Source: Micrococcales bacterium
GTDB lineage: Bacteria; Actinomycetota; Actinomycetes; Actinomycetales; Microbacteriaceae
Reading direction: 5' to 3'
Length of the DNA stretch: 15,178 nucleotides
NCBI GenBank assembly: GCA_947448975.1
Contig: CANFPR010000009.1
Span: 1 to 15,178, forward strand
A program made the translations under genes and the position numbers. This document shows positions 648 through 15,027 of this stretch, piece after piece. The notes below the pieces were generated by a model. That model was given only the letters and a program-made list of their open reading frames with translations. It had not been told where the DNA came from and did not search any database. The number at the start of each line of letters is the position of its first letter. Positions within the stretch are counted from its first letter, which is position 1.

Positions 648-675
648 CTCCGCTGCGGGAATCGGGCCGAGCTAC
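644..675. other. Inverted repeat spanning both stop codons of the convergent pair
   Basis: A 7-bp perfect stem (GTAGCTC at 644-650, GAGCTAC at 669-675) with an 18-nt loop lies between the SGNH hydrolase and acyltransferase genes and includes both stop codons. Neither side is followed by a T-run, so it is not a convincing intrinsic terminator. It may weakly limit convergent read-through. Confidence 0.3.
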
Positions 676-2909
676 AAAAGACCGTTTTCGATCAGGAAAG
701 CCCTAAACAACGGAGCCATCTTGGCTGCGAAGGTTTGGGTGAAGTGCGAGCCATCCCAGTAAACGGGAGTCTTGTCGATTATGGCTGGGCAGTCGCCGTT
801 GCTGCAGGTCCAGTCGTTCGAGTCGATGAACGGAATGCCGTATTTCGAGGCTAAGTTCGACTGAGTTTGCACGTAGTGCGAGAGCCAACTGTAGTGACCA
901 GTGCAGCGTTCACCTAGTTGATTGCCGGCCTGAACACAGTCGACCAAACCCTGCTGGCTGGTTGGCAAACCAAAGTAGACGATGTTTTTTGAAAGTTTGC
1001 TCAGTTTCGACAGAGCGCTGTCTAGCCCTGCCTGCCAGAGTGCATCGTGATTGTCTACCGCCTTTTTATTGCCATCGGCAATTGGGTGGTAAACCTGATC
1101 AGACAACACAACCAGGTCTGGCTGATTTTGCTTGATGTACTGATTCACCCAAGCGCGGTGATCAGGGCAGCTGCTGTCAGCACCTGCGTCTGACCATGAC
1201 CACGGAACAATGTCAGAAACCATACATTCGCGTTGGTTCAGCCCAATGATGTGCCAATCCTTTAGCCCAAGGGCTTCGATAACCATCGGGTAGATCGCAA
1301 GGGCATAGGAATCACCGAGGATTACGGCAGTATGTGCGGCGTTTACAGGGCCGTAGCTGCAAGTTGGTTGGTGAAAGCTCGGGTCCATGCACTGCGCCCA
1401 CTGAGCACCGCGCTGACCCAGCAACGAGGCGATCGGCGGGTCTAGGTCGTCGGGCACTCTAGTGAGGGCCAGGCCATCCTGAATCTTTGGAAGCCACTTC
1501 GACAGAAGTGCGGCAAGCTTTGGCTCAGCCGGTGGTTCTGGTGGGTCGGTGGGTTTCACGGTCGGCTTTACCGAAGGACTTGCCGAGGGGCTTGCAGACA
1601 CCGACTCGGTAGGGCTCGGAGTCGAGGTGGGTTTCGATGTGGCCGAATCGCTCGGTGTTGGCGACGATGTTGGCCCAGAAGCATCTGGCTTGTACTTGTC
1701 TGGGGTCTTCGAGCCTGAATCAGCAAAAACGTGAGCGGTGTTCAATGTGCCACCGGTCATGGCCAGAGCACTTGAGGCTAGCCCCAAAATCGCAACGGTT
1801 GCAGCGCCAACCATCACAAAACGCTGCTTTGACGAGCGCTTAGTGGTGGGCAGTTCTAGGCGTCTGACCGGGGTTTCGACGAAGCGGTAACCCAGAGCCG
1901 AAAAACCAACGGTTACTGCGATGACGGTTGGCGCGTACATCCAAGAATTCGCCAGGTCGGGTAGCAACGACCGAGTGAAGATAAGTACAGGCCAGTGGAT
2001 GAGGTAAATGGAGAACGAAATCTTGCCTACGTAAACCATGGCCTTCGACGTGAATATTCTCGAAAGTACAGATACCTTTGTGTTGCTCAAATCGGCCCAG
2101 ATGAAGGCGGCGGCTGCGAGCGTAGGGAGCAACGCGAGGTAGCTCGGAAAGCCGAGGGAAGCATTGAGTGCGACAAACGAAATTGCAAAAGCGGCGACCG
2201 CACCCAACGAGGCGATGGTCGAACGACGAACGCTGACCTTGGTCTTCTTGCCGAACGCCAGAGTTGCCAACAGCGCTCCGACGGCGAGCTCATAGGCTCT
2301 GGTTGCCGACGAGAAGTACGCCGTGGCCGGCTCGGTCGAACCCTGCCAGATGGCCCAGACCAGCGACAGGGTTGCTCCTGTTGCAATAACCCAGGTGAGT
2401 ACCGTTTGCCTCTTAACCGAGCCAAGTTTTCTCGCCATAGCAACCACAGCGATTACTACCAAAGGAAACACTAGGTAGAACTGCTCCTCGACCGCCAAAG
2501 ACCAATAGTGCTGCACAACAGATTGATCGAAACCGTGGTTGAAATAGTCGGTTGACTGCTGGATCAAATGCAGGTTGGCGAGAAAGAGTGCCGCCCAGTA
2601 GGAGTCGGTAGCAACTTGAACCGCTTTGAGTTGGCTAAACAGCAAGAGTGCTGCCAGGCAGGTGAGCACAAGCACCAAAAGCGCCATCGGAAGAATGCGG
2701 CGGGCACGGCGGAAGTAAAACTCACCGAGAGAGATTCGGCCAGCCGATGCGCGCTGAAGTAAGAAGTTGGTGATCAGATAGCCAGAGATGACGAAAAAGA
2801 TATCTACACCGCTGAATCCTCCAGAGAAGCCGGCGATACTCAGGTGTGAAAGCACTACAGCGCCAACTGCAACTGCACGCAGGGCATCTATGTCGGGGCG
2901 ATATTTCAA
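672..2909 (-). CDS. Membrane O-acyltransferase (acyltransferase 3 family) fused to an SGNH domain
   Basis: OafA-like integral membrane acyltransferase, expected to move acyl (usually acetyl) groups onto extracellular glycans or cell-wall polymers. Residues 1-350 form the acyltransferase 3 domain with about ten hydrophobic segments. It opens with YRPDIDALRAVAV and has the conserved His22 in LSHLS, followed by FSGVDIFFVISGYLIT; SLAVEEQFYLVFP lies at 137-149. One further membrane segment lies near 364-384. A Pro/Ser/Thr-rich linker covers about 398-462. Residues 463-745 form an SGNH domain with LGDSYA at 531-536 (nucleophile Ser534) and DGSHFT at 719-724 (Asp719, His722), placed outside the membrane. 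In known OafA-type fusions the SGNH domain completes acyl transfer. The start is TTG at 2907-2909, chosen because the family motif begins right after it; the Shine-Dalgarno is weak. It lies 71 bp downstream of giant gene A on the same strand and may be co-transcribed with it. The acceptor is unknown. Confidence 0.93.
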   Translation of the reverse strand: MKYRPDIDALRAVAVGAVVLSHLSIAGFSGGFSGVDIFFVISGYLITNFLLQRASAGRISLGEFYFRRARRILPMALLVLVLTCLAALLLFSQLKAVQVATDSYWAALFLANLHLIQQSTDYFNHGFDQSVVQHYWSLAVEEQFYLVFPLVVIAVVAMARKLGSVKRQTVLTWVIATGATLSLVWAIWQGSTEPATAYFSSATRAYELAVGALLATLAFGKKTKVSVRRSTIASLGAVAAFAISFVALNASLGFPSYLALLPTLAAAAFIWADLSNTKVSVLSRIFTSKAMVYVGKISFSIYLIHWPVLIFTRSLLPDLANSWMYAPTVIAVTVGFSALGYRFVETPVRRLELPTTKRSSKQRFVMVGAATVAILGLASSALAMTGGTLNTAHVFADSGSKTPDKYKPDASGPTSSPTPSDSATSKPTSTPSPTESVSASPSASPSVKPTVKPTDPPEPPAEPKLAALLSKWLPKIQDGLALTRVPDDLDPPIASLLGQRGAQWAQCMDPSFHQPTCSYGPVNAAHTAVILGDSYALAIYPMVIEALGLKDWHIIGLNQRECMVSDIVPWSWSDAGADSSCPDHRAWVNQYIKQNQPDLVVLSDQVYHPIADGNKKAVDNHDALWQAGLDSALSKLSKLSKNIVYFGLPTSQQGLVDCVQAGNQLGERCTGHYSWLSHYVQTQSNLASKYGIPFIDSNDWTCSNGDCPAIIDKTPVYWDGSHFTQTFAAKMAPLFRAFLIENGLL

Positions 2910-2980: not shown

Positions 2981-5900
2981 TTATCTAAGGTTTGCGTTCG
3001 AGTTTCTGGTCCACTTCGCGAACGCCTTGACGTTGCCCTTCAGCATGAATGCGTCTCCAGGTGCATAAGACACGCCTCCCAGAACCCAGCCGGCAAATGT
3101 GTAACCGTCGCGCACCAGCGTGCCCTCAGACACGGAGAGCGTTGTTGAACCGTAACCCTGAATCGATGACGGAGCTAGGCCGCCAGTTGCTCGCGCTGCC
3201 ATGTATGTGATGGTAAAGCGAGACCACAAAGCAATCGCGGTAACCTGACCCTCGACAGAGATGGTGTCACCCGGTCTGTAAGTGGTTCCGTTAATCGACC
3301 AACCAGAGAAGTAGTATCCGGTTCTCTTCAACGATCCAACGTTGGCTCGAACAATGCGGTTCACGCATCCGTTCACAGTCGGAGGCAGTTGTCCGGAGGT
3401 CTTGGTCGGAGCTACGTAAGTCATGTAGCAGCGAATCCACCGTGCGAAGAGGTTTGTATTCTTCGAAACGGTCACATACTGCCCTGAAGCGTAGGTGGTT
3501 CCGTTCAGAACCCAGCCACCGAAACTGAATCCGGTTCTGGTTAGAGTTCCGTTGTTTGGAAGCAGGAATCGACCTCCACCTGACGTGCTGCTAGGTGCCG
3601 AACCTCCGTCGGCGCCGGCTCGCAAGAAGGAGATGGTGTATCCGAGAGTCGTGTCTGCCGAAGCAGCACTGTAGGTTCCGGTGCCTGCCTCGTTAGTCGC
3701 GGCCACCTTGAAGCTGTAAGACGTGTATGCAGTTAGGTTTCTGATGATCACGCTAGATCCGGTGAACTCACTGCCTGCGTAGGTGCTCCAAACTACTGCA
3801 CTGCGCTCTTTGAATTGAATAACGTAACCGTCGATCGCCGCTCCGCCGTTGTCAGATGGATCTGTCCATGTGACGACGACAGTGGTTTGCGTGGTGACAG
3901 TTGCGGTGATGGCCGGAGCTAGAGGTGCTCGTCGAGGTACCCCAGTGACGGTGCTTGAGTAGGCACCGGTAGCCACTGAACTTACCGCTGCGATTTGGAA
4001 GTCGTATACGGTTCCGTTGACAAGCCCGACGACTGTATAGGTCGAGTTGATTCCGAAGCCGTCGTTTACCGTACGCCATACGTTTGAACCATTAGCCCGG
4101 TATCTCAATACATAGTCGGTGATTGCTGCACCGTTTCCGGTTGCACCACTCCACGACACAGTGACCTGGCTCACTCCGGCAACCGTGGTGACGGTTGGGG
4201 CCGTAGGTGAACCAAGTGGCGTTGCTGCAATACGCGAGCTGTAGCTCTGCACGGTGACGGAGTCGGCCATGGCAGCGATCTCGAATTCGTATTCGGTGCC
4301 GTTGTTCAAACCGGTCACTGTTCCCGAAAGCGAGGTTGACTGAGTGTCAATTTCTGACCAAGTAACCGTGCCCACTTCGCGATAGCGAACCACGTAGTTG
4401 ACAGGGCTTCCAACTAGAGGGGCTACCCAAGTTAGTGCGACACTCTGGTCTCCAGGAGTTGTGGCAACGTCAACGGTGCTGACGCCAACGCCTGCACCAC
4501 GAATGTTAGTTGCCTCAACCAGGAAGTCGTAGTCGCTCACACCATCGAGGCCTGAAACCGTCGCACCTGGCGTTGGTGTTAGCCCATCGGTGAAGGCAAT
4601 CCATGTTGGCGAGGTGCGAACCTTGTAATAGACGTTGTAATCATTCACAGCTGCACCACCATCAGAAACTGGCGCTTGCCAGGTGAGGTTTGCATCGGTG
4701 CCCGAAATAGACACGCTTAGGTTGGTTGGCTGCCCTGGAACCGTTGCAGGGGTTGCCGACACGGGAGCCGCAAAGGCACCCTGGCCGATTGCGTTCTTGG
4801 CGGCGACGCGCACGAGGTAAACCGTTCCGTTTACCAGTCCGGTAATAACTGCGTTGGTCGCCGTTGAGACGCCGTCAACAAATGGCACGTATGACGATCC
4901 AACCTTGTACTGAATCACGTAGTCGGTAATCGCAGAGTTTCCGTCACTCAAAGGTACTTGCCACTGAATCGAGATCTGACCCGCTTCACCCGAAGCCTCC
5001 AGGTTTACAACCTCACCGGGAACTGTCTTCGGAGGATCCGCCGGCAAGACCGTAAACGACGACGACGCAGTTGCTGCGATGTGGGTATCGTCTCCAGGCT
5101 GGTCGGCGGTAATCGAACATAGACCTTGGCCAACCAGCGTGATCACGGTACCGGTGACGGTACATACGTTGGATGGAGAGACGGTGTAGGTGTAAGGCAG
5201 ACCGCTGCCCTGGTTTGTAGTTGCCAAGTAGATTGGGCCCTGGTCAACCTTGGTGTCTTGAATATCCGTTGGCTCAACTAGCTGCACAAATATTGAGAGC
5301 GAAGCGGGGGTTCCTCGTCCGATTGTGTTTTCGGCTAGCACCTGCATCGAATAAAGCTGGCCGGCCGTAAGGCCGCTAAGTGGAATCGATAACGTGCCAT
5401 CGCCGTTGTCGTTAACCTGTGCGGGGGTCAACCACGACGAGCCGCCATCAATCGAATAAAGGTAGCCAGTTATCGGAGCTCCACCCACATCTGTCGGAGG
5501 GGTGAACGTTAGATTGGCCGAAGTGTTTAGACCGCTTCCGTTCAAGTTCAGCGGTGCACCTGGCACGCCCAGGAATAGAACCTGACCATCCTGCGCGTCA
5601 ATGTTGAGGTTTCTCACCGAGTCGAAAGATTGCGAGGCAACAGCATCTACAAGGGTTCCAGTAACCTGGGTCGCCAGTGGAAGAGAGCCGCCACCCGAGG
5701 TGAGAGCCACCGATGAGCAGAGCTCTGGGCCTTTACCTTGGTAGTCAAGCGCGATGGTTGCCGAAGTGATGCTGCCGGATACTCCCATAAACGCAAAGCT
5801 AAAGGTTGGTCGTGACCCCGAAAGCGCAGTGTCTAGAGCTGACATATCTAGGTCGGAACCCACGGTCACAGGCACGTTAGTCCAACCTGTAACAGCCTCG

Positions 5901-7564
5901 CCCGAGGCCTTTCTCACTGTCAGGAATATTCCAGTAGCAGTTCCTCCGCCAACGATGTTGGAAATTCGTAGAGTACGCCAAGCGGTGATTCCGTTGATTG
6001 AAGAGCAGGCGTATCGCGGAGCAAATTGCGACGGTTGAAGGGTAATAACCGGGTTGGCTGCGCAGCCAGGTTGCCCAGTAATGCCATCAAAGTTTCCAAG
6101 CACACCTTGATCGCTGTTGAACCAAAGACAGGTGGCGTTCTCCGGGTCGGAGGTTACTTGATAAAGGTGAACGGTGTTGTAGTTGTTATAGGCCGAACTA
6201 TCGAAACCTGCACAAACGTCGTCTGCTGCGAAGTCAAAACAACCCACCTGGGAGGCGCTTGCATCTACGACATACATCCGGTGATTAACAACCACACCGT
6301 CGTTCCAGAGATCATTTATGGCACTTACCGCTACTAAGGGATTATTGACGTTTAGAACATTGCCATCGAAGTCGATGCAGACATCATTTCGGCACATGCC
6401 ATCGACAACGCCAGATACCGATTCATGCAGAAGGAAGTAGAACTGGCCATCGCCGCCAATGGCAAGAGGCCAGTTGGAGCCGCTGCACTGCGACAAATCT
6501 GAAAGTTTGTAACAAGAAATACCTGCACTATTTGAGAGGTAGATCGAACTGCCGTGGGCCAGCATTCTGGAGAAATAGTCATTGTTGCCGTATTCGGGGG
6601 CAAGGTTTTCGGCACAGGCGGCGTTTATAGACGAGTCGAAGCAGAGGATTCGGGTGTGGCTAGGCTCGGAATAATAATATTTCGAACCCACGCGATTGAG
6701 TTCAGGAACCCCGATCCAGTTGAAGACATTTTGTTCATCGCTAAGCACGGTGAAGCCACAATCAATCGGGTTTGCCACGTCGGTAACATCGATGCATAAG
6801 ACGCCGGCCTTGAACTCATTTGGCCCGCTTGCTGGCGCAGTCGCTAGATAGAGCTTTCCGTTTAGCGAGTCTGCCACGGGGTTCGACTTCGAACCAGTGA
6901 AGTAATCGACACCATCTGACGTTTGAATCCATCGTGGTTGTCCGTCTGAGTAGCACGAACTGCTGTCTGACTTCAGGTGGCAGTCGAGACCGACACGCGA
7001 GTCGTGGTGGTAAACGTTGAAGACGTAGTTGTCCATCAGTGTGACACCCCAACCGTCACCACCAGAATTGGCCGAGAAGGTAGAGGCAGGAATCGCAGCC
7101 GTCGTTTCTGTGGAATAAGCCTGAGAATAGCCGCTGATGAGTCCGGCAGTAACGCTTGCAGCAACGGCTTTGATGTCGGTAACCGACGATGCCGGAGCAG
7201 GTTCATTGAGCTGCCAAGTTGCGCCGTTATCGGTGCTGAAATATAGAGTCCAGCCTTCTGGAGCTTCTGCTGAACCCGCTTGGTAAACAGTTGTTGAAGT
7301 GTATGTGGTGTGAATCTCGCGATCGCCCACACCAGGTGTTAGAAGAGCCGATGTTCCGACTCGAACCACCGTGCCGTCTGCGAGGGTAGCGCCTTCACGG
7401 AGAGTTTGACCGTTTAGATAGGCCTCGGTGTTGGAGCCAACGACGTCGGCTACCGGCCCGGTAGTGGTAGCCAATGCGGGCTGAGCGCTCAGAAGAGAAA
7501 GTGGCAAGAGAACTGCCAACAGACTTGAAAGAAACTTGGTCCGAGCGTTGATCTGAATCTTCAC
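2981..7564 (-). CDS. Giant secreted multi-domain protein A (Cys-paired propeller-like, FN3 and Listeria-Bacteroides repeats)
   Basis: Probable exported surface or matrix protein; no enzymatic motif recognised. The start is GTG at 7562-7564, preceded by AGGAG at a 6-nt distance. Residues 1-32 are a Sec signal peptide ending AQPALA. Residues 33-165 form a domain I do not recognise, shared with paralogue B. Residues about 166-510 hold seven cysteine pairs in a repeating unit that suggests a seven-bladed propeller; one unit (LCIDVTDVANP) resembles LVIVD repeats. Residues about 511-660 look like a beta-sandwich. FN3 domains follow at about 667-763, 847-940, 942-1036, 1038-1116, 1118-1210 and 1212-1307, with an Ig/MBG-like insert at about 764-840 carrying Cys801 and Cys816. 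Three Listeria-Bacteroides (InlB B-type) repeats lie at 1309-1520. There is no LPXTG motif and no C-terminal membrane helix, so anchoring would be non-covalent, or the protein is released. Adhesion or matrix binding is an inference. It is divergent from a TetR gene that may control it. Confidence 0.93.
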   Translation of the reverse strand: MKIQINARTKFLSSLLAVLLPLSLLSAQPALATTTGPVADVVGSNTEAYLNGQTLREGATLADGTVVRVGTSALLTPGVGDREIHTTYTSTTVYQAGSAEAPEGWTLYFSTDNGATWQLNEPAPASSVTDIKAVAASVTAGLISGYSQAYSTETTAAIPASTFSANSGGDGWGVTLMDNYVFNVYHHDSRVGLDCHLKSDSSSCYSDGQPRWIQTSDGVDYFTGSKSNPVADSLNGKLYLATAPASGPNEFKAGVLCIDVTDVANPIDCGFTVLSDEQNVFNWIGVPELNRVGSKYYYSEPSHTRILCFDSSINAACAENLAPEYGNNDYFSRMLAHGSSIYLSNSAGISCYKLSDLSQCSGSNWPLAIGGDGQFYFLLHESVSGVVDGMCRNDVCIDFDGNVLNVNNPLVAVSAINDLWNDGVVVNHRMYVVDASASQVGCFDFAADDVCAGFDSSAYNNYNTVHLYQVTSDPENATCLWFNSDQGVLGNFDGITGQPGCAANPVITLQPSQFAPRYACSSINGITAWRTLRISNIVGGGTATGIFLTVRKASGEAVTGWTNVPVTVGSDLDMSALDTALSGSRPTFSFAFMGVSGSITSATIALDYQGKGPELCSSVALTSGGGSLPLATQVTGTLVDAVASQSFDSVRNLNIDAQDGQVLFLGVPGAPLNLNGSGLNTSANLTFTPPTDVGGAPITGYLYSIDGGSSWLTPAQVNDNGDGTLSIPLSGLTAGQLYSMQVLAENTIGRGTPASLSIFVQLVEPTDIQDTKVDQGPIYLATTNQGSGLPYTYTVSPSNVCTVTGTVITLVGQGLCSITADQPGDDTHIAATASSSFTVLPADPPKTVPGEVVNLEASGEAGQISIQWQVPLSDGNSAITDYVIQYKVGSSYVPFVDGVSTATNAVITGLVNGTVYLVRVAAKNAIGQGAFAAPVSATPATVPGQPTNLSVSISGTDANLTWQAPVSDGGAAVNDYNVYYKVRTSPTWIAFTDGLTPTPGATVSGLDGVSDYDFLVEATNIRGAGVGVSTVDVATTPGDQSVALTWVAPLVGSPVNYVVRYREVGTVTWSEIDTQSTSLSGTVTGLNNGTEYEFEIAAMADSVTVQSYSSRIAATPLGSPTAPTVTTVAGVSQVTVSWSGATGNGAAITDYVLRYRANGSNVWRTVNDGFGINSTYTVVGLVNGTVYDFQIAAVSSVATGAYSSTVTGVPRRAPLAPAITATVTTQTTVVVTWTDPSDNGGAAIDGYVIQFKERSAVVWSTYAGSEFTGSSVIIRNLTAYTSYSFKVAATNEAGTGTYSAASADTTLGYTISFLRAGADGGSAPSSTSGGGRFLLPNNGTLTRTGFSFGGWVLNGTTYASGQYVTVSKNTNLFARWIRCYMTYVAPTKTSGQLPPTVNGCVNRIVRANVGSLKRTGYYFSGWSINGTTYRPGDTISVEGQVTAIALWSRFTITYMAARATGGLAPSSIQGYGSTTLSVSEGTLVRDGYTFAGWVLGGVSYAPGDAFMLKGNVKAFAKWTRNSNANLR
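3005..3640 (-). repeat. Three Listeria-Bacteroides (InlB B-type) repeats at the C-terminus of A
   Basis: Three units of about 70 residues, each with the pattern RTGY-F-GW-NG-Y-G, then a hydrophobic strand and a closing ARW, ALW or AKW. The middle unit adds Cys1379 and Cys1400, likely a disulfide. Repeats of this kind occur in extracellular proteins and are often tied to surface attachment or spacing. Confidence 0.85.
3641..5566 (-). repeat. Six FN3 domains plus one Ig-like insert in A
   Basis: Repeated units of about 90-97 residues with the FN3 hallmarks: a lead such as VPGQPTNL, then TW-P-SDGG--ITDY-V-Y, then GL-NGT-Y-F-V-A-N--G-G. The fourth unit (from about residue 1038) lacks the usual Pro-rich lead. 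The second unit is preceded by an Ig/MBG-like module with a cysteine pair. This is a rigid stalk-like arrangement. Confidence 0.9.
6035..7069 (-). repeat. Seven cysteine-paired repeats of A, probable beta-propeller
   Basis: Cysteines fall in seven local pairs: 195/204, 257/269, 308/317, 351/360, 391/396, 442/451 and 479/501. Most units read as a hydrophobic -LY- strand, a loop, a strand ending in C-F-D or similar, a short turn and a second Cys, such as ILCFDSSINAAC. The seven-fold count and strand pattern suggest a seven-bladed propeller with a disulfide in each blade. The fold is inferred, not shown. Confidence 0.6.
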
Positions 7565-7685: not shown

Positions 7686-8345
7686 ATGGAAACTAACCGA
7701 GCATCGCGTGTTTCGGGCCTGCCTGTGAGTGGGCGCAAAAGTTCGGCAGTGTTAAGAAACCGAAAAAAGATACTTCTTGCCGCACAAGAAGTACTTGGCG
7801 AGCTTGGCCCAGATGTTCAAAACGACGCAATTGCCGCACGTGCGGGGGTTTCGGTTAGCACTCTCTATATGCACTTTACGAACCGTCAAGAATTGGTTCG
7901 AGCTGCTTTGCTAGATGCGTTACGTACCTGGGAACGCTGGGTAATGTCGCACTTTACGAGCATCGAGCCTTCGCTGGAGAATTCCGTTCTGCCAGCAAGG
8001 CTTCTAATGCGAATTCAAGAAACGCACCCGGTTTATGGCCGACTGCTTCAGAGCCACCTGGGATCGACCGGACTCCTGTTCGACGAGCTTTCTCAAGGCT
8101 TCTCCGACAGCATCAGGTTGTTGGTGCAAAGAGGTGAACTTTCGGATGACCAAATCGAGCCTCGCCTTGCAGCAATGGAGGGTGCCGTCTACGGAATTCT
8201 TGGTCGCCAGCTAAAGAACCCCGATGCCACGGCCGAGGAAGCCGACCTAGCTCTAGAGCTAGCTCTTCCGATTCTGGGAATCGCGCCAGATAAGGCGCGG
8301 CAACTGACTCACTCCCCGTTGCCTAATCTCTCCGCCCGAATCTAA
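7686..8345 (+). CDS. TetR-family transcriptional regulator
   Basis: One-component DNA-binding regulator of 219 residues. An unstructured Ser/Arg-rich start (1-22) is followed by the TetR DNA-binding domain at about 25-72: RNRKKILLAAQEVLGELG, then a helix-turn-helix around 46-64 with AIAARAGVSVSTLYMHF and the usual NRQELV after it. The rest is an all-helical ligand and dimer domain without a recognisable signature, so the inducer is unknown. The start is ATG at 7686 and the transcript is probably leaderless. The gene is divergent from giant gene A across 121 bp holding two palindrome candidates, the classic layout for a TetR repressor of its neighbour. Its stop codon overlaps that of the convergent membrane-protein gene by 3 bp (8343-8345 against 8342-8344). 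The family call is firm; the target is inferred from position. Confidence 0.92.
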   Translation: METNRASRVSGLPVSGRKSSAVLRNRKKILLAAQEVLGELGPDVQNDAIAARAGVSVSTLYMHFTNRQELVRAALLDALRTWERWVMSHFTSIEPSLENSVLPARLLMRIQETHPVYGRLLQSHLGSTGLLFDELSQGFSDSIRLLVQRGELSDDQIEPRLAAMEGAVYGILGRQLKNPDATAEEADLALELALPILGIAPDKARQLTHSPLPNLSARI

Positions 8346-9085
8346 GGTTTCTTGGCTTCGGCCGCGATCGTGGTGCGAATTTGCTCTGCAGCGTCTTTCG
8401 CGTATTTCAACGCAGCATCTTTGCCGTCGTTAGACCAAGCATTTGCGATGCCAACAGCGATTCCAATCGGAATCTGATCGAGGGCCATGTGTTGAAACGC
8501 CTCGCGTTTTGGTTTGTTGCTCATAGCAATCTTCAGCCAGAGGCCGTTCGGGCCTAACTCAAAATCAATAACCTTCGCGAGCTCAAAAACCCGAGCTTCC
8601 TTTTCGCCGATAAAGATCATTCGTTGACTGGTGATTTTTAGAGTCCCGGTATCGACCGAAGAGAGTTGCTCGGGGTTGCGAGTGATTTGACCCTGAGAAC
8701 CACCGACGTTTGCTCGAACTCTTCCAAAGATAGGAAAGCTCACTCCTAAGTTGCCCCCGCTGTAGCTCGATCCGGTGCTCTTGAACTCAAGTAGCTCGAC
8801 TCGAGTGATGTCGAACAGGGCCTCCTCATCACCGACGGTCTCTGCCGTGCCATTGAACAGGTTGCCTGACGCCCAAAGGTCAATTTTGTCTGCTATCTGC
8901 AAGAGTTCGGCCGAGTGACTAGCACCCTTAGATTTCGTCACCAGTATTGCGAGCGCCACAACTATGGCTATTACCAAAAAGGCTCCTACGGCCGCACCAG
9001 CTGCCCCCACATCGCGCACCGCGCTAGACATAAGTGAAATCGCTAGCAAGATGCCGAAGCATCCGAAACACCCAATCTTGTTCAT
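8342..9085 (-). CDS. Membrane protein with probable PH/GRAM-like domain, function unknown
   Basis: 247 residues from the ATG at 9083-9085. A 29-residue longer version from a TTG at 9172 is unlikely because it would start in the terminator tail of gene B. The N-terminus has two hydrophobic segments at about 4-19 and 29-52, the first with the odd CFGCFG motif. A soluble part follows. At about 142-200 the sequence TGTLKITSQRMIFIG, then VFELAKVIDFELG and LWLKI resembles the strands of bacterial PH or GRAM-like domains, which bind lipids or serve as scaffolds at membranes. The C-terminus is helical and Ala/Lys-rich (about 220-247). It lies between giant genes A and B and converges with the TetR gene. 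Its own promoter candidate is just upstream. I do not recognise a named family, and a link to A or B is only positional. Confidence 0.75.
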   Translation of the reverse strand: MNKIGCFGCFGILLAISLMSSAVRDVGAAGAAVGAFLVIAIVVALAILVTKSKGASHSAELLQIADKIDLWASGNLFNGTAETVGDEEALFDITRVELLEFKSTGSSYSGGNLGVSFPIFGRVRANVGGSQGQITRNPEQLSSVDTGTLKITSQRMIFIGEKEARVFELAKVIDFELGPNGLWLKIAMSNKPKREAFQHMALDQIPIGIAVGIANAWSNDGKDAALKYAKDAAEQIRTTIAAEAKKP

Positions 9086-9089
9086 GCCT

Positions 9090-9117
9090 AAAGTATGGTG
9101 CAACCCGGCGACATCAA
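9090..9117 (-). promoter_or_regulatory. Candidate promoter of the PH-like membrane protein gene
   Basis: On the minus strand, TTGATG (9112-9117), a 16-bp spacer and TACTTT (9090-9095) stand 4 nt before the ATG. The -10 fits the loose TANNNT actinobacterial form. The short distance implies a leaderless or nearly leaderless mRNA; no Shine-Dalgarno is seen. Confidence 0.4.
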
Positions 9118-9170
9118 GAGCATGAGGCACTCGCTGCGTTCGACGAAAAAGCGCTGGCGGCGGGTTGGGC

Positions 9171-9209
9171 AAAGAAAAACGGCACTCGACGGTTATGTCG
9201 AGTGCCGTT
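9171..9209 (-). terminator. Strong intrinsic terminator of gene B
   Basis: Perfect 13-bp stem (9178-9190 with 9197-9209) and a 6-nt loop. On the minus strand the last stem bases run into a TTTTTCTTT tract. It starts 12 bp after the stop codon of gene B. On the plus strand no T-run follows, so it acts one way. It insulates the membrane-protein gene from B. Confidence 0.9.
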
Positions 9210-9221
9210 CATCCGAGTGTT

Positions 9222-12200
9222 CTAACCTCTTGGTGCTAGAGAGTTTCTAGACCACTTCGCGAACGCTTTGACGTTGCCCTTCAGAATGAAAGTCTCGCCA
9301 GGCGCATATGACCTGCTGCCCAGAACCCAACCCGAGAAGGTGTAGCCGACACGCACGAGGGTTCCTTCGCTTGATGCAAGAGTGGTTGCTCCGTAACCCA
9401 AAGTAGCTGCAGGTGCATCTCCACCCGTGGATCGAGCTCCCATGTAGGTAATGGTGAAGCGAGACCATTGCGCGATGGCGGTGTAACGACCGTCGACTGC
9501 AATCACATCGCCCGGGCGATACGTGGTTCCGTTGATTGACCAACCCGTGAAGTAATAGCCAGTTCTCTTAAGATTGCCCACGTTGGCTCGCACGATTCGG
9601 TTCGTGCAGCCTGACACGCTTGACGGAACCGAACCCGAAGATTTGGTTGGCGCCACATAGGTCATGGTGCAACGAACCCAACGAGCAAACAGGTTGACAT
9701 TCTTAACCACGGTGATTTGCTGACCTGCCACATACGCAGTGCCGTCGAGCACCCAACCTAAGAACGTGTAGCCAGTTCGCGTCAAGCCGCTGGTGTTACC
9801 AGGGATTGTGAAACGGCCACCCGCTGTTGCGGCGCTAGGCGCAGTTCCAGACGTTGCCCCCGCACTGTAGAAGGTCACAACGAAACCAGTTGTCACACCG
9901 AGAGCCGCCGAACTGTAGCTGCCTGTGCCGGCATCATTCTCGGCGGCGACGCGGAACGTGTACGACGTATTTGGGGTAAGCGCCCGAATGATTACGCTCG
10001 AGCCAGTGAATTCGTTACCCGCGTACGTCGTCCAGACCACAGCGCTGCGCTCTCTGAACTGAACAACATAACCGGTGATTCCTGCACCACCGTTATCGGA
10101 AGGGTCTGTCCAAGAGAAGGTTGCCGTGGTGTGAGTTGTCGAGACAACCGTAATTGATGGCGCACCCGGTGCGCGTCTTGGAGTGGCTGGAACCGCCGAC
10201 GAATATGCTCCGGTTCCGACAGCGCTAACGGCGGCAACCTCAAACTCGTATTGAGTTCCATTAACCAGGCTCAACACGGTGTATTCGGAGTTTAGGCCGA
10301 CACCATCGTTTGCTGTGCGCCAGACGTTTGAACCAACAGCACGATAGTGCACGATGTAGTCGGTGATGGTTCCACCGTTTCCGACAGCACCGCTCCACGA
10401 AACCGTCACCTGAGAGACGCCAGCCACCGCTGTAACAGTTGGCGCCGTAGGGGTTCCTAGAGGGGTAGCCGAAATAGTCGAACTGTAACTTTGCACAGTG
10501 ACCGAGTCGGCCATTGCTGCGACACTGAACTCATATTCGGTTCCATTTGTAAGCCCAGCCACGGTAACCGCCAGCGAGGTGGATTGGGTGTCGATGTCCG
10601 TCCAAGTTGCCGCGCCTACCTCTCTGTAACTGACGACGTAGCTAACGGGACTTCCAACTAGCGGCGCAACCCAGTCGAGCGTGACCGCGGAATCAGAGAC
10701 AGAAGCATGGATGTCTACAGTGCTCACCGCGCTGCCGATACCCATGACGTTCTGGGCCTGAACCATGAAGTCGTAGTCGCTCACGCCATCGAGCCCCGTG
10801 ACCGTCGCTCCAGTTTGATCACTAACGCCTTCATCAAAAACTACCCAGGTAGGCGAAGTGCGGAGCTTGTAAGAAACCACGTAGTCGGTGATTGCTGACC
10901 CTCCATTTGAAATTGGCGCTTGCCAAGCAATGAAAGCATCTGTTCCCGATAGCGAGACAGCAAGGCCAGAGGATTCACCGGGAACATCCGCGGGTACCGC
11001 TGAAACTGCAACGGCGAATGGGCTTAGACCTACCGCATTTTTCGCTGCAACGCGGAACAGATAGGTTGTGCCGTTCGTGAGTCCGGTGACTAGAGCACTG
11101 CGCGTAGAAGATACACCGTCAACAAAGGGAACGTACGATGATCCAACCTTGAACTGCACCACGTAGTCGGTGATGGCGGAATTTCCATCACTGTTCGGTA
11201 GGTCCCAAGTGAGAAGCACCTGACCAGAACCTGCAGTAGCTGCAAGGTTTTGAACTTCGCTCGGAGCGGAGGTTACAACCGCGGCCGGAAGCACCGTGAA
11301 AGACGAGGTGTCGCTGGTAGCGATGTGCGTATCGTCTCCTGCCTGGTCTGTTGTCACCGAGCAAGAGCCAACGTCTACCAAAGTGACTACGTTGTTGGTC
11401 ACGGTACAAACCTCTGGAGGAGACACCGTGTAGGTGTATGGCAAGTTATTGCCATTCACTGTTGCAAGGTAAATCGGGCCTTGGTCAACGGGAGTATCGG
11501 GAATGTTGCTCGGTTCAACCAGTTGCACCGTGATCTGCAAGCGCGCTGGAGTACCGCGGCCGACGCTATTCTCGGCCAAGACCTGCATCGCATAGGTTTG
11601 GCCCGCCGTCAAACCAGTCAGAGGAATTGTGAGCGTGCCGTCGCCATTGTCGATGGTTTGTGATGGCGTAAGCCAGCTCGTGCCACCGTCAATCGAATAA
11701 AGGTATCCGGTTACCGCCGCTCCGCCAATGTCGATTGGTGGCTCAAAAGTAAGGTTTGCCGAAGTGTTCAGACCCGAACCAGTCAGGTTTTGTGGCTCTC
11801 CGGGTGTGCCAAGAAACAGATTCTGACCATCTTGGCTGTCGATGTTGAGAGTCCTCATCGAAGGGTAGGTTTCGGCCGTAACAGAGTCGGAAAACCAACC
11901 GAGAATTGCGGCGCTAACTGGAAGCATTCCGCCACCGGCATTGAGCTGAACGGTTGAGCAGAGTTCTGGACCTTTGCCCTTATAGTCCAGGGCGATCGTG
12001 GCAGACGAAATTGTTCCCTGCACGCCGATGAAAGCGAAGCTGAACGTCGGTCTAGAGCCAGATAGGGCAACATCAAGACCAGACATGTTCAAGTCAACGC
12101 CAAGCGAGATTGGAACATTGGTCCATCCGGTAACTGGAGTGCCATTCGCGTCGCGAACTGTCAAGAGAATACTGCTAGCCGTGCCACCTCCCACAAGAGC

Positions 12201-13832
12201 AGAGATTCGAAGAGTATCCCAAGAGGTAATGCCATTCGCAGTGGAACACGAATACCTAGGAGCAAACTGCGAAGGTTCTAGAGTCACCACCGGATTCTCT
12301 GAGCAGCCCGGATTACCGGAGGTAGCGTCAAAGTTGCCAAGAATACCCTCATCGCTGTTGAACCAGATGCAGTTTGCGTTGTTTGGGTCTTGCACGAGTT
12401 GGTACGTGTAAACCTGCACGTTGGGTGAGTAGGCAGAAGTGTTAAAGTCCGTGCAATAGTCACCAGTCAAGTAGTCGAAACACGATATCGAATAAGCAAT
12501 GTTCGTAAGAATGTATGCGCGGTGGTTTGTTACCAGCGCATCCTGCCAAATTTCTGCGTAACCACCGACGTACTGAATCGGGTTTACGACATTCAGCTGT
12601 GCTCCGCTGAGGTCCCAGCACCAGTCTGCTGAGCATAACCCGTCAACTATTCCAGACGAATTCTCGTGCTTTATGAACATGCCATAGACGTTGTTGAAGG
12701 GCACCCAGGATGGCCAACTGCCACTTGAACATGACGAAAGGTCGGCAACCTTAAAACATTCAAGAGCGCTAACCGTCATCACGTAAAGATTTCCTCCGTG
12801 AACTAGCAATCTTGTGGGGTTGGCATTATCCGACGCAGAAAGTAGAGGAACTTCGTTAGCCGAACAAGGTGATTGCGTGGCTGAATCGAAGCAAAGAATG
12901 GTGCTGTCACCAGAGAAACTCGCGAAGTACTTGGTGCCAGAACGCACGAGCTGCGAAAGTTGCTGACCGTACCAAAAGGACATGTAAAGGTTGTAGCCCG
13001 AACTGTCTGAAAGAGGTGTAAAGCCACAGTTTTGCGGGTCGCTTGGGTCGACGACGTCGATACAAAGTACACCGGGATCAAACGCGTGCGATCCGCCGCT
13101 GGGCATAGTGAAGAAGTACAAACGACTGGTGAGGGGATCGGCAATTGGGTTCGATCTTGGGCCGGTTACGTAGTCCTCACCTTCAGGGCCTCGGATGGTG
13201 CGAGGTAGCCCGTCGTTGTAGCACGATGAACTGTCGGATTTCAGGTGGCAGTCGAGACCCAGGTAGTCATAGTGGTGATAGATGTTGTAAACGTAGTTAT
13301 CCATCAGGGTCACACCCCAGCCATCACCAGCTGAGCCAGCTGAAAAGGTTGAGGCAGGCACGGCAGCCGTTGTCTCGGTGGAGTAAGACTGCGATAAACC
13401 GCTAATGAGTCCAGCCGTGACGTTGGTCTTTGTCGCTCTAATATCAGTCACGCTTGAGGCGGGTACCGGTTCGGTTGAAGACCAATTGACGCCATAGTCT
13501 GTGCTGTATTCGAGAGTCCAACCCTCCGGCGCAATAGCGCTTCCTGCTTGATAAATCACGTTCGAGTTGTAGGTCGTATGTATTTCTCTGTCACCGACAC
13601 CAGGGCTGAGGAGTGCAGACGTTCCAACCTGAACTTCCGTGCCGTCGGCTAGAGTCGCCTGCTCGCGCAGGGTCTGTCCATTTATAAAGGCCTCGGTGTT
13701 TGAGCCGACGCTATCGGCAACTGGCCCTGTGGTTAAGGGTGGTGACGCGTAAGCCTGGAGGCTGGACATCTGAAGTGCCACGGCAATCGTAAAGACAATG
13801 ACCTTGAACCATTTTGAGCTGGTACGAAACAC
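9222..13832 (-). CDS. Giant secreted multi-domain protein B, full-length paralogue of A
   Basis: 1536 residues with the same domain order as A and clear similarity along the whole length, so the two arose by duplication. The start is GTG at 13830-13832 with GAGGA 10 nt upstream. Residues 1-29 are a Sec signal peptide ending LQAYA, unlike that of A. The shared N-terminal domain (33-165) follows, with GQTLRE, LADGT and PGVGDREIHTTY in both. Seven cysteine pairs lie at 195-510, FN3 domains at about 676-770, 856-948, 950-1043, 1046-1126, 1128-1219 and 1221-1315, an Ig/MBG-like insert at 772-849, and three Listeria-Bacteroides repeats at 1317-1528. All 20 cysteines align with those of A. No LPXTG or C-terminal membrane helix is present. 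It has its own promoter candidate and a strong terminator, so it is probably monocistronic. Adhesin or matrix function is inferred from architecture only. Confidence 0.93.
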   Translation of the reverse strand: MFRTSSKWFKVIVFTIAVALQMSSLQAYASPPLTTGPVADSVGSNTEAFINGQTLREQATLADGTEVQVGTSALLSPGVGDREIHTTYNSNVIYQAGSAIAPEGWTLEYSTDYGVNWSSTEPVPASSVTDIRATKTNVTAGLISGLSQSYSTETTAAVPASTFSAGSAGDGWGVTLMDNYVYNIYHHYDYLGLDCHLKSDSSSCYNDGLPRTIRGPEGEDYVTGPRSNPIADPLTSRLYFFTMPSGGSHAFDPGVLCIDVVDPSDPQNCGFTPLSDSSGYNLYMSFWYGQQLSQLVRSGTKYFASFSGDSTILCFDSATQSPCSANEVPLLSASDNANPTRLLVHGGNLYVMTVSALECFKVADLSSCSSGSWPSWVPFNNVYGMFIKHENSSGIVDGLCSADWCWDLSGAQLNVVNPIQYVGGYAEIWQDALVTNHRAYILTNIAYSISCFDYLTGDYCTDFNTSAYSPNVQVYTYQLVQDPNNANCIWFNSDEGILGNFDATSGNPGCSENPVVTLEPSQFAPRYSCSTANGITSWDTLRISALVGGGTASSILLTVRDANGTPVTGWTNVPISLGVDLNMSGLDVALSGSRPTFSFAFIGVQGTISSATIALDYKGKGPELCSTVQLNAGGGMLPVSAAILGWFSDSVTAETYPSMRTLNIDSQDGQNLFLGTPGEPQNLTGSGLNTSANLTFEPPIDIGGAAVTGYLYSIDGGTSWLTPSQTIDNGDGTLTIPLTGLTAGQTYAMQVLAENSVGRGTPARLQITVQLVEPSNIPDTPVDQGPIYLATVNGNNLPYTYTVSPPEVCTVTNNVVTLVDVGSCSVTTDQAGDDTHIATSDTSSFTVLPAAVVTSAPSEVQNLAATAGSGQVLLTWDLPNSDGNSAITDYVVQFKVGSSYVPFVDGVSSTRSALVTGLTNGTTYLFRVAAKNAVGLSPFAVAVSAVPADVPGESSGLAVSLSGTDAFIAWQAPISNGGSAITDYVVSYKLRTSPTWVVFDEGVSDQTGATVTGLDGVSDYDFMVQAQNVMGIGSAVSTVDIHASVSDSAVTLDWVAPLVGSPVSYVVSYREVGAATWTDIDTQSTSLAVTVAGLTNGTEYEFSVAAMADSVTVQSYSSTISATPLGTPTAPTVTAVAGVSQVTVSWSGAVGNGGTITDYIVHYRAVGSNVWRTANDGVGLNSEYTVLSLVNGTQYEFEVAAVSAVGTGAYSSAVPATPRRAPGAPSITVVSTTHTTATFSWTDPSDNGGAGITGYVVQFRERSAVVWTTYAGNEFTGSSVIIRALTPNTSYTFRVAAENDAGTGSYSSAALGVTTGFVVTFYSAGATSGTAPSAATAGGRFTIPGNTSGLTRTGYTFLGWVLDGTAYVAGQQITVVKNVNLFARWVRCTMTYVAPTKSSGSVPSSVSGCTNRIVRANVGNLKRTGYYFTGWSINGTTYRPGDVIAVDGRYTAIAQWSRFTITYMGARSTGGDAPAATLGYGATTLASSEGTLVRVGYTFSGWVLGSRSYAPGETFILKGNVKAFAKWSRNSLAPRG
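9249..9884 (-). repeat. Three Listeria-Bacteroides (InlB B-type) repeats at the C-terminus of B
   Basis: Same three-unit array as in A, with RTGY-F-GW cores and closing ARW, AQW and AKW. Cys1388 and Cys1409 of the middle unit match the pair in A. The middle unit is the most conserved between the paralogues (for example NRIVRANVG and KRTGYYF). Confidence 0.85.
9888..11807 (-). repeat. Six FN3 domains plus one Ig-like insert in B
   Basis: Same arrangement as in A: one FN3 unit, an Ig/MBG-like module with Cys809 and Cys824, then five FN3 units. The unit starting near residue 1046 again lacks the Pro-rich lead, so that oddity predates the duplication. Confidence 0.9.
12276..13337 (-). repeat. 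Seven cysteine-paired repeats of B, probable beta-propeller
   Basis: Pairs at 195/204, 257/269, 314/323, 359/368, 400/405, 451/460 and 488/510 keep exactly the within-pair spacing seen in A (8, 11, 8, 8, 4, 8 and 21 residues between cysteines). The loops between them vary in length. One unit (CIDVVDPSDP) is close to the LVIVD repeat pattern. Confidence 0.6.
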
Positions 13833-13953: not shown

Positions 13954-15027
13954 CTAAACGTTGAAGCGGAACTCGACCACGTCGCCATCTTTCATGACGT
14001 AGTCCTTGCCTTCCATGCGCACCTTGCCGGCTGCCTTGGCGTCGGTCATTGAACCAGCCGAGTCGAGGTCTTCAAAAGAAACAATTTCGGCCTTGATGAA
14101 ACCACGCTCGAAGTCGGTGTGAATAACGCCAGCAGCCTGCGGAGCCTTCCATCCTTGACGAATGGTCCAGGCACGAGCCTCTTTCGGGCCAGCGGTGAGA
14201 TAGGTCTGCAAGCCAAGAGTCTTAAAACCAATGCGCGCGAGCTGGTCGAGGCCCGATTCATCCTGGCCCAGTGAAGCCAGCAACTCCCCTGCCTCTTCGG
14301 GCGTGAGGTCGATAAGTTCGCTCTCAACCTTGGCGTCTAGAAAAACAGCCTCGGCCGGCGCAACCAAATCGGCGAGCGCCTTCTTCTTGGCTGGGTCGGT
14401 GAGAATCGATTCATCCACGTTGAAAACGAAAAGTGTTGGCTTGGCGGTTAGTAGCCCGAGCTCGCGAATCGGAGCAAGATCAATTTTGGTGGCCGATAGC
14501 GGGGTTCCGGCATCTAGCGCTTTGAGGGCTTCGTCGATTACCTCGAGCACTGCGGGTTCGGCCTTTTTACCCTTTACTTCTTTTTCAACGCGTGGTCGCG
14601 CTTTTTCGAGGGTTTGCATGTCGGCGAGAATTAGCTCGGTGTTGATGGTCTCGATGTCACTCTTTGCGTCGACTCGACCATCTACGTGAATGACATCGCC
14701 ATCTACGAAGCCGCGAACCACCTGGGCAATGGCGTCGGCTTCACGGATGTTCGCCAAGAACTGGTTTCCTAGCCCCTCGCCTTCGCTTGCACCGCGAACG
14801 ATTCCGGCGATGTCGACGAACGACACGGGCGCTGGCAGGATTCGCTCAGAACCGAAGATCTCTGAAAGTCGCGTTAGTCGAACATCTGGGAGGTTGACAA
14901 CACCCACGTTTGGTTCGATGGTTGCGAACGGGTAGTTCGCCGCCAGAACGTTGTTCTTGGTGAGTGCATTGAAGAGGGTCGACTTGCCAACATTTGGCAG
15001 TCCCACGATTCCGATAGTTAGGGCCAC
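13954..15027 (-). CDS. ychF: Ribosome-binding GTPase/ATPase YchF (OLA1 type)
   Basis: Conserved cytosolic P-loop NTPase of the Obg-related group, linked in other bacteria to ribosomes and stress responses; family members often prefer ATP. 357 residues, close to the usual length of about 360. The Walker A/G1 motif GLPNVGKS is at 9-16, ATIEPNVG at 35-42, the G3 motif DIAG at 72-75 followed by GASEGEGLGNQFL, and the altered G4 motif NVDE at 203-206, which is typical of YchF rather than NKxD. A helical insert lies at about 129-170. The C-terminal TGS domain (about 279-357) has the conserved DFERGFIKAE and ends DGDVVEFRFNV. The start is GTG at 15025-15027. It is divergent from the exonuclease gene with 20 bp between, and no clear terminator separates it from gene B downstream. 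Confidence 0.97.
   Translation of the reverse strand: MALTIGIVGLPNVGKSTLFNALTKNNVLAANYPFATIEPNVGVVNLPDVRLTRLSEIFGSERILPAPVSFVDIAGIVRGASEGEGLGNQFLANIREADAIAQVVRGFVDGDVIHVDGRVDAKSDIETINTELILADMQTLEKARPRVEKEVKGKKAEPAVLEVIDEALKALDAGTPLSATKIDLAPIRELGLLTAKPTLFVFNVDESILTDPAKKKALADLVAPAEAVFLDAKVESELIDLTPEEAGELLASLGQDESGLDQLARIGFKTLGLQTYLTAGPKEARAWTIRQGWKAPQAAGVIHTDFERGFIKAEIVSFEDLDSAGSMTDAKAAGKVRMEGKDYVMKDGDVVEFRFNV

What the first reader, a model, noticed from the sequence alone, without database searches (positions are those of the whole stretch)
6035..7069. Seven disulfide-paired units, a possible cysteine-stapled propeller, conserved in both paralogues
Cysteines in both proteins fall into seven local pairs with identical within-pair spacing (8, 11, 8, 8, 4, 8, 21 intervening residues), each in a strand-turn-strand context. 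The same region in B is 12276-13337. A propeller with a disulfide in nearly every blade is unusual, and I do not recognise a named family beyond a partial likeness to LVIVD repeats in one unit.
Basis: partly seen in the sequence, partly recalled or inferred. Interest (0 to 1): 0.7.

Follow-up and report, generated by a model that had tools for sequence, protein, structure and literature searches.

The report
Disulfide-stapled propeller heads on bacterial stalks
Two neighbouring genes of a small-genome actinobacterium encode long, probably exported proteins whose front end is predicted to be a seven-bladed, propeller-shaped head held by cysteine pairs that stay the same while much of the rest changes, most likely a binding head on a stalk.

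Summary
The cysteine pattern is real. A and B both have pairs with 8, 11, 8, 8, 4, 8, 21 intervening residues. An eighth invariant pair of cysteines (A C520, C616) lies just outside the finding.

Of 181 module rows, 180 keep Cys at all 16 columns, down to 22% identity to A. Whole-protein cysteine counts are even in 164 of 174 homologues. One relative has shifted a blade-1 cysteine to the preceding strand of the same blade. Six of seven pairs face each other in predicted hairpins in both models. Pair 479/501 does not, and no S-S distance could be measured.

No Pfam, NCBIfam or PDB sequence family covers the module. Relatives carry it on FN3, CshA-type or Ig stalks, 66 of 174 with a sorting-signal-like end. 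Between A and B the propeller is the least alike domain (49% against 69-76%).

Best reading: oxidised recognition head of a fibrillar-adhesin-like protein. Fold near certain, staples likely, adhesion inferred.

The parts
2981..7564 (-). Gene A, 1527 aa: export-signal-like N-terminus, beta-sandwich, propeller, beta-sandwich, FN3 array, three List_Bact repeats
   Evidence: ORF; Pfam fn3 6 stretches, Flg_new 3 stretches; model
9222..13832 (-). Gene B, 1536 aa, paralogue with the same architecture
7466..7564 (-). Export-signal-like N-terminus of A (residues 1-33)
   Evidence: hydrophobic stretch, 13 of 14 apolar or small; no signal-peptide program was available
7115..7465 (-). N-terminal all-beta domain of the module, A 34-150 (conserved APEGW)
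   Evidence: strands; 76% A/B identity; its fold was not searched separately
6053..7084 (-). Seven-bladed propeller of A, residues 161-504
   Evidence: model residues 132-475
6953..6982 (-). Blade 1 cysteine pair C195/C204
6758..6796 (-). Blade 2 cysteine pair C257/C269
6614..6643 (-). Blade 3 cysteine pair C308/C317
6485..6514 (-). Blade 4 cysteine pair C351/C360
6377..6394 (-). Blade 5 cysteine pair C391/C396 (second and third strands)
6212..6241 (-). Blade 6 cysteine pair C442/C451
6062..6130 (-). Blade 7 cysteines C479 and C501; pairing uncertain
   Evidence: invariant but not opposite each other in the predicted hairpins
5645..6052 (-). C-terminal all-beta domain of the module, A 505-640, with invariant C520 and C616
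3650..5587 (-). FN3 array of A (about residues 660-1305), likely stalk
2981..3649 (-). List_Bact (Flg_new) repeats of A, residues 1306-1527; no sorting signal
12294..13352 (-). Propeller of B (about residues 161-513)
   Evidence: by alignment to A; B itself was not folded

Best explanation
A and B are exported surface proteins. The front module (all-beta domain, seven-bladed propeller, all-beta domain) is the head; the FN3 array is a stalk; the C-terminal repeats lie towards the cell. After export the cell's DsbA/VKOR-type machinery oxidises the head, putting a disulfide inside each blade (third to fourth strand in blades 1-4 and 6, second to third in blade 5) and another in the C-terminal domain. 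These bonds hold each blade without needing a conserved core, so strands and loops are free to change and diversify what the head binds while the frame stays fixed. Shown: cysteine pattern, conservation, domain order. Predicted: fold and strand register. Inferred: that the disulfides form, surface display of A and B, and binding of a surface ligand (glycan or protein of another cell or particle).
Against: No S-S distance was measured; pair 7 fails the register test in both models. 120 of 181 rows (not A or B) have one more cysteine within 30 residues after the sixteenth column, its partner not determined; 10 of 174 whole proteins have an odd count. A and B have no sorting signal and no sortase was found in their genome, 73% complete, so their attachment is unknown. 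No known adhesive domain matches the module. Divergence of the head may be relaxed constraint rather than selection: blade 1 is 80% identical, and against five homologues the List repeats are less alike than the propeller in 3 of 10 comparisons. Foldseek's own TM-scores for the whole 611-residue model are modest (query-normalised 0.17-0.37 in the 50 rows shown). No binding data exist.
Confidence: 0.6

Rival explanations
1. The head is an enzyme. Propellers often carry active sites, and the invariant non-cysteine residues (G169 D170 G171, H186, Y468, D473; nearly N183, H187, P474, W481) fall in blades 1 and 7, which close the ring against each other and could hold a catalytic or metal site.
For: G169, D170, G171, H186, Y468 and D473 are the same in 197 of 197 rows, N183 in 194, P474 and W481 in 196, H187 in 187. 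Some relatives carry a subtilase domain (P0042).
Against: No enzyme family matches the module; most labels on the homologues are stalk-type domains; the invariant residues may simply close the ring.
Confidence: 0.13
2. The module is a passive, rugged cap or spacer at the tip of a surface fibre with no specific ligand; the cysteines serve only stability.
For: Much of the sequence outside the cysteines is free to change; patchy distribution.
Against: Greater divergence of the head than of the FN3 stalk in A against B and in 10 of 10 homologue comparisons, one of them only just; invariant non-cysteine residues.
Confidence: 0.17
3. The cysteines are metal ligands or redox-sensing thiols, not structural disulfides.
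For: Their extreme conservation; invariant His and Asp in the same module.
Against: Even counts, facing hairpin register, within-blade shift in L050; the proteins look exported and the genome has disulfide-forming enzymes.
Confidence: 0.04

Closest known systems
YncE and WDR5-type seven-bladed propellers
   Different: 6-12% identity in the rows shown; WD40 matched only 1 of 12 modules, at E 0.13; blade disulfides not known to me in them (recalled)
Plasmodium CyRPA (PMC5349852, passages read)
   Same: Propeller whose disulfides are sequential and lie inside single blades; non-enzymatic
   Different: Six blades, sialidase-like fold, five bonds, one blade unstapled; no PDB sequence match to our profile
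Photorhabdus PHL lectin (PMC5584973, passages read)
   Same: Bacterial seven-bladed propeller that binds sugars in repeated sites
   Different: Its one disulfide described in the passages joins two subunits; no stalk mentioned; no PDB sequence match to our profile
CshA and other fibrillar adhesins (PMC8286594 passages; PMC10952558 search listing)
   Same: N-terminal head, repeated stalk, C-terminal anchor in many relatives; some relatives use CshA repeats themselves
   Different: Head is a propeller module outside the Pfam copy used; 'propeller' does not occur in PMC8286594; A and B lack a known anchor
PilY1-type pilus-tip propellers (recalled; PMC13190605 search listing only)
   Same: A propeller used at the tip of a surface fibre
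   Different: Type IV pilus system of Gram-negatives; not compared here

Membership tests
Seven-bladed beta-propeller fold | Seven radial four-stranded blades | tested here: met
   Two models match seven-bladed chains over nearly the whole ring; a prediction, not a solved structure
Seven-bladed beta-propeller fold | Detectable internal blade repeat in sequence | tested here: inconclusive
   BLASTP of the region against itself found only the self match; an L-C-F-D ... C-A-G pattern recurs by eye
Disulfide-stapled propeller (CyRPA-like principle) | Sequential intrablade disulfides | tested here: inconclusive
   Six of seven pairs in facing register in two models, even counts, shift in L050; no distances, pair 7 not in register
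CyRPA family | Sequence relationship and six-bladed sialidase-like fold | tested here: not met
   No PDB sequence match at E up to 1; seven blades predicted
WD40 (PF00400) | Pfam match over cut-off | tested here: not met
   1 of 12 diverse modules, at E 0.13
LVIVD repeat | Pfam match | tested here: not met
   Not listed at E up to 1 for A, B or the 12 modules; HMMER filters may hide weaker matches
Fibrillar adhesin | Exported long protein with repeated stalk domains | tested here: met
   FN3 array in A and B, CshA repeats in relatives, hydrophobic N-terminus (export itself inferred)
Fibrillar adhesin | Known adhesive domain in the head | tested here: not met
   No Pfam family on the module of A at E up to 1
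Fibrillar adhesin | Cell anchor | tested here: not met
   A and B: no sorting signal in the last 60 residues and no anchor domain; relatives: 66 of 174 have a sorting-signal-like end
Fibrillar adhesin | Demonstrated binding | not testable with these tools
   needs experiment

The most novel reading that the evidence does not exclude
An uncatalogued class of bacterial recognition heads in which an invariant disulfide frame frees a propeller to diversify, much as framework and loops divide labour in other binding scaffolds. A and B would be two specificities made from one stalk design; relatives have moved the same head onto sortase-anchored proteins, OmpA-bearing proteins, CshA fibrils and a myxobacterial protein with two copies, always with the same invariant site (DG, H, Y, D) where blades 1 and 7 meet.
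Probability: 0.3. Interest if true: 0.7.

Novelty: new variant of a known kind. Interest (0 to 1): 0.52.

Why it matters
Propellers are common, but in the papers I could search and in recall I found no bacterial example with a cysteine pair in every blade. If the reading holds, a tip domain on surface fibres of small-genome actinobacteria gains a fold, a rule for recognising it (16 cysteines in order) and a testable role in contact with other cells or particles. It would also be a natural rugged, evolvable binding scaffold.

Tried and rejected
LVIVD and WD40 membership: no support. Viral carriage: 36 stretches matched a pattern in viral contigs, none encodes a relative. Structure search in viral models: 161 matches at E up to 0.001, the 50 shown mostly phage and giant-virus proteins at 7-12% identity; read as shared fold only. 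Internal repeat by self-BLAST: none. First search of related genomes with A1 gave 28 of 59, but A1 ended in an FN3 stretch and most places hit that part of the profile; it was replaced by the module-only A5. PF28033, a precomputed label on many FN3-rich hits, is unlikely to be the propeller, as module-bearing hits such as P0013, P0014, P0040 and P0049 lack it; the Pfam scan of A and B that I could run does not list it. Loss of a whole cysteine pair as proof of pairing: no row lost one, so the test had no material; the one shift (L050) was used instead. Other pairings among C479, C501, C520 and C616 cannot be excluded: the 501-520 gap (18-22) is as constant as the 479-501 gap (21-23). CyRPA and PilY1 are not among the rows shown; no weight was put on that. 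Host: other drawn members of its family have 3-4 Mb genomes; that it is an Aquiluna/Rhodoluna-type Microbacteriaceae is a guess from recall, not tested. Operon partner: none seen by eye in the window or L034; in L032, L033 and L035 glutathione-peroxidase and short-chain-dehydrogenase genes lie nearby, which may be mere synteny within the genus. Literature: ten searches. Searches asked for blade disulfides (one found no paper), 80 for cysteine-rich propellers, 86 for propellers in fibrillar adhesins. I saw no bacterial propeller with a disulfide in each blade among the rows listed; PHL was checked in passages and has an inter-subunit bridge. The propeller survey PMC9218822 has no occurrence of 'disulfide' or 'cysteine' in its main text. 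Listings were cut at 8-20 rows and the library lacks most subscription journals.

Full report
Observation. The two long minus-strand genes encode A (2981-7564, 1527 aa) and B (9222-13832, 1536 aa). Each has 20 cysteines; the 14 in the finding form seven sequential pairs with gaps 8, 11, 8, 8, 4, 8, 21 in both. Two more, C520 and C616 in A, follow at once and are just as conserved. Random placement reproduces the pair-and-gap pattern in 6 of 200000 trials, with limits chosen after the fact.

Family. Three searches returned 95, 43 and 36 homologues; each scored only the roughly 8000 candidates sharing most words, so these are lower bounds. After dropping five partial hits (P0093, P0095, P0136-P0138), 170 domains of the 174 proteins, nine locus stretches, A and B gave 181 rows. 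All 16 cysteine columns are occupied in 180; in P0094_1 an insertion shifts one, and its cysteine is present a few residues on. The rows include near-copies: P0001 and P0009 differ from A and B at 3 and 8 places, and some loci repeat. At under 60% pairwise identity 43 representatives remain, lowest pair 20%; between A150 and A620, 24 columns are invariant among them, 15 of them cysteines; the sixteenth cysteine column fails only in one row. In the wider set of 197 rows G169, D170, G171, H186, Y468 and D473 never vary, while N183 holds in 194, P474 and W481 in 196 and H187 in 187. Of 19 further loci (L042-L061 without L047), 16 had a module long enough to align, some from genomes already counted; 15 of 16 had all columns filled.

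Do the cysteines pair? Gaps inside pairs are nearly fixed in pairs 1, 4, 6 and 7 and vary more in 2, 3 and 5, while gaps between pairs inside the propeller range from 20 to 61. Counts between the first and last column are 16 in 193 of 197 rows, 18 in two and 20 in one; the odd one, L050 with 15, has its sixteenth just upstream. I chose that stretch; in 120 of 181 rows one more cysteine follows within 30 residues, partner not determined. Over whole proteins, without the first 35 residues, the count is even in 164 of 174 and odd in 10. In L050 the fourth-strand cysteine of blade 1 has become glutamate and a new cysteine stands on the preceding strand, so the third-strand cysteine keeps a possible partner inside its blade (one sequence, strand placement by alignment). 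In both models six pairs face each other within one residue in adjacent strands, 12 of 12, against 211 of 2011 placements of the same spacings in A. Pair 7 fails: C479 lies on the second strand of blade 7 and C501 beyond the third, with a register offset of 8 in both models. It may clamp the chain leaving the ring to the second strand, or bond to C520 or C616. Distances were not available.

Surroundings. Pfam finds FN3 and List_Bact repeats behind the module of A and B, and no family on the module of A at E up to 1; in 12 diverse modules five families match one member each, best E 0.046. NCBIfam and PDB sequences give nothing. Homologues carry the module before FN3 arrays, sometimes with OmpA or a subtilase (precomputed labels; subtilase seen again in P0042), before CshA and Ig repeats, or almost alone before a sorting-signal-like end. 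By a lenient pattern of my own such an end is present in 22 of 95, 43 of 43 and 1 of 36 homologues. Class E sortases of soil and freshwater actinobacteria use LAXTG (PMC5148588, passages), the form of 33 of the 43 in the second set. A and B have none. Sortase was found in 6 of 10 genomes of the genus tested, not in G000. A myxobacterial protein holds two modules. Within the genus 12 of 67 genomes hold the module; in wider draws 6 of 394 in the class and 5 of 396 in the phylum, the own genome counted in each, two of the class matches weak (E 1.9e-8 and 4.6e-4) and at most three candidates scored in most genomes.

Chemistry. The genome holds a VKOR and a Thioredoxin_4 (DsbA-like) match. In Actinobacteria MdbA, in Actinomyces oris reactivated by VKOR, oxidises exported proteins (PMC9974433, passages).

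How it works. A and B are alike in the N-terminal domain (76%), the C-terminal domain, the FN3 array and the List repeats (69% each) but only 49% in the propeller, and 35-40% in blades 3-6; blade 1 is 80%. In ten comparisons of five homologues with A and B the propeller is less alike than both flanking domains and the FN3 array each time (P0002 against A only just, 0.629 against 0.632), but the List repeats are lower still in three. A frame fixed by disulfides, with the rest free to change, on a stalk that changes less, is what a recognition head would look like. It could also be relaxed constraint. No ligand is known.

Comparison. The nearest described principle is PfCyRPA, six blades with five intrablade disulfides and no sialidase activity (PMC5349852, passages). 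PHL shows that a bacterial seven-bladed propeller can be a lectin (PMC5584973, passages). Neither is a relative by the sequence search. The protein layout fits the fibrillar-adhesin class (PMC8286594 passages; PMC9210967 passages), except that its head is not a recognised adhesive domain and A and B lack a known anchor.

Verdict. Fold: about 0.95. Surface recognition head: about 0.55. New family by the libraries searched, known fold, known principle, new combination.

Noticed in passing
9177-9210, minus strand: Strong terminator-like hairpin (14 pairs, loop 6, T-rich tail) just after gene B, before the 276-aa ORF; suggests B ends its own transcript.
   Followed up: no
8342-9172, minus strand: 276-aa ORF with a membrane-like N-terminal part between the paralogues; no Pfam family over cut-off and none in NCBIfam.
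   Followed up: no
7686-8345, plus strand: TetR-type regulator between A and B on the opposite strand; could control either paralogue.
   Followed up: no
672-2909, minus strand: Acyltransferase-3 fused to an SGNH domain, next to gene A; probably acylates a surface polymer (inferred).
   Followed up: no
7208-7243, minus strand (A residues 108-119): Asp-box-like motif in the N-terminal domain, outside the propeller (PF02012, E 0.0037, under cut-off).
   Followed up: no
L045 and P0094 (L009): Surplus cysteines inside the module come in twos: four more in L045, an adjacent CC in both copies of the myxobacterial module.
   Followed up: partly
L032, L033, L035: In three genomes of the genus the CshA-type propeller gene has a glutathione-peroxidase gene and a short-chain dehydrogenase gene nearby.
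   Followed up: partly
G021 contig C3 (L033): A sortase match lies on the same contig about 3 kb beyond the propeller gene.
   Followed up: no
13954-15027, minus strand: YchF-type GTPase gene beside gene B.
   Followed up: no
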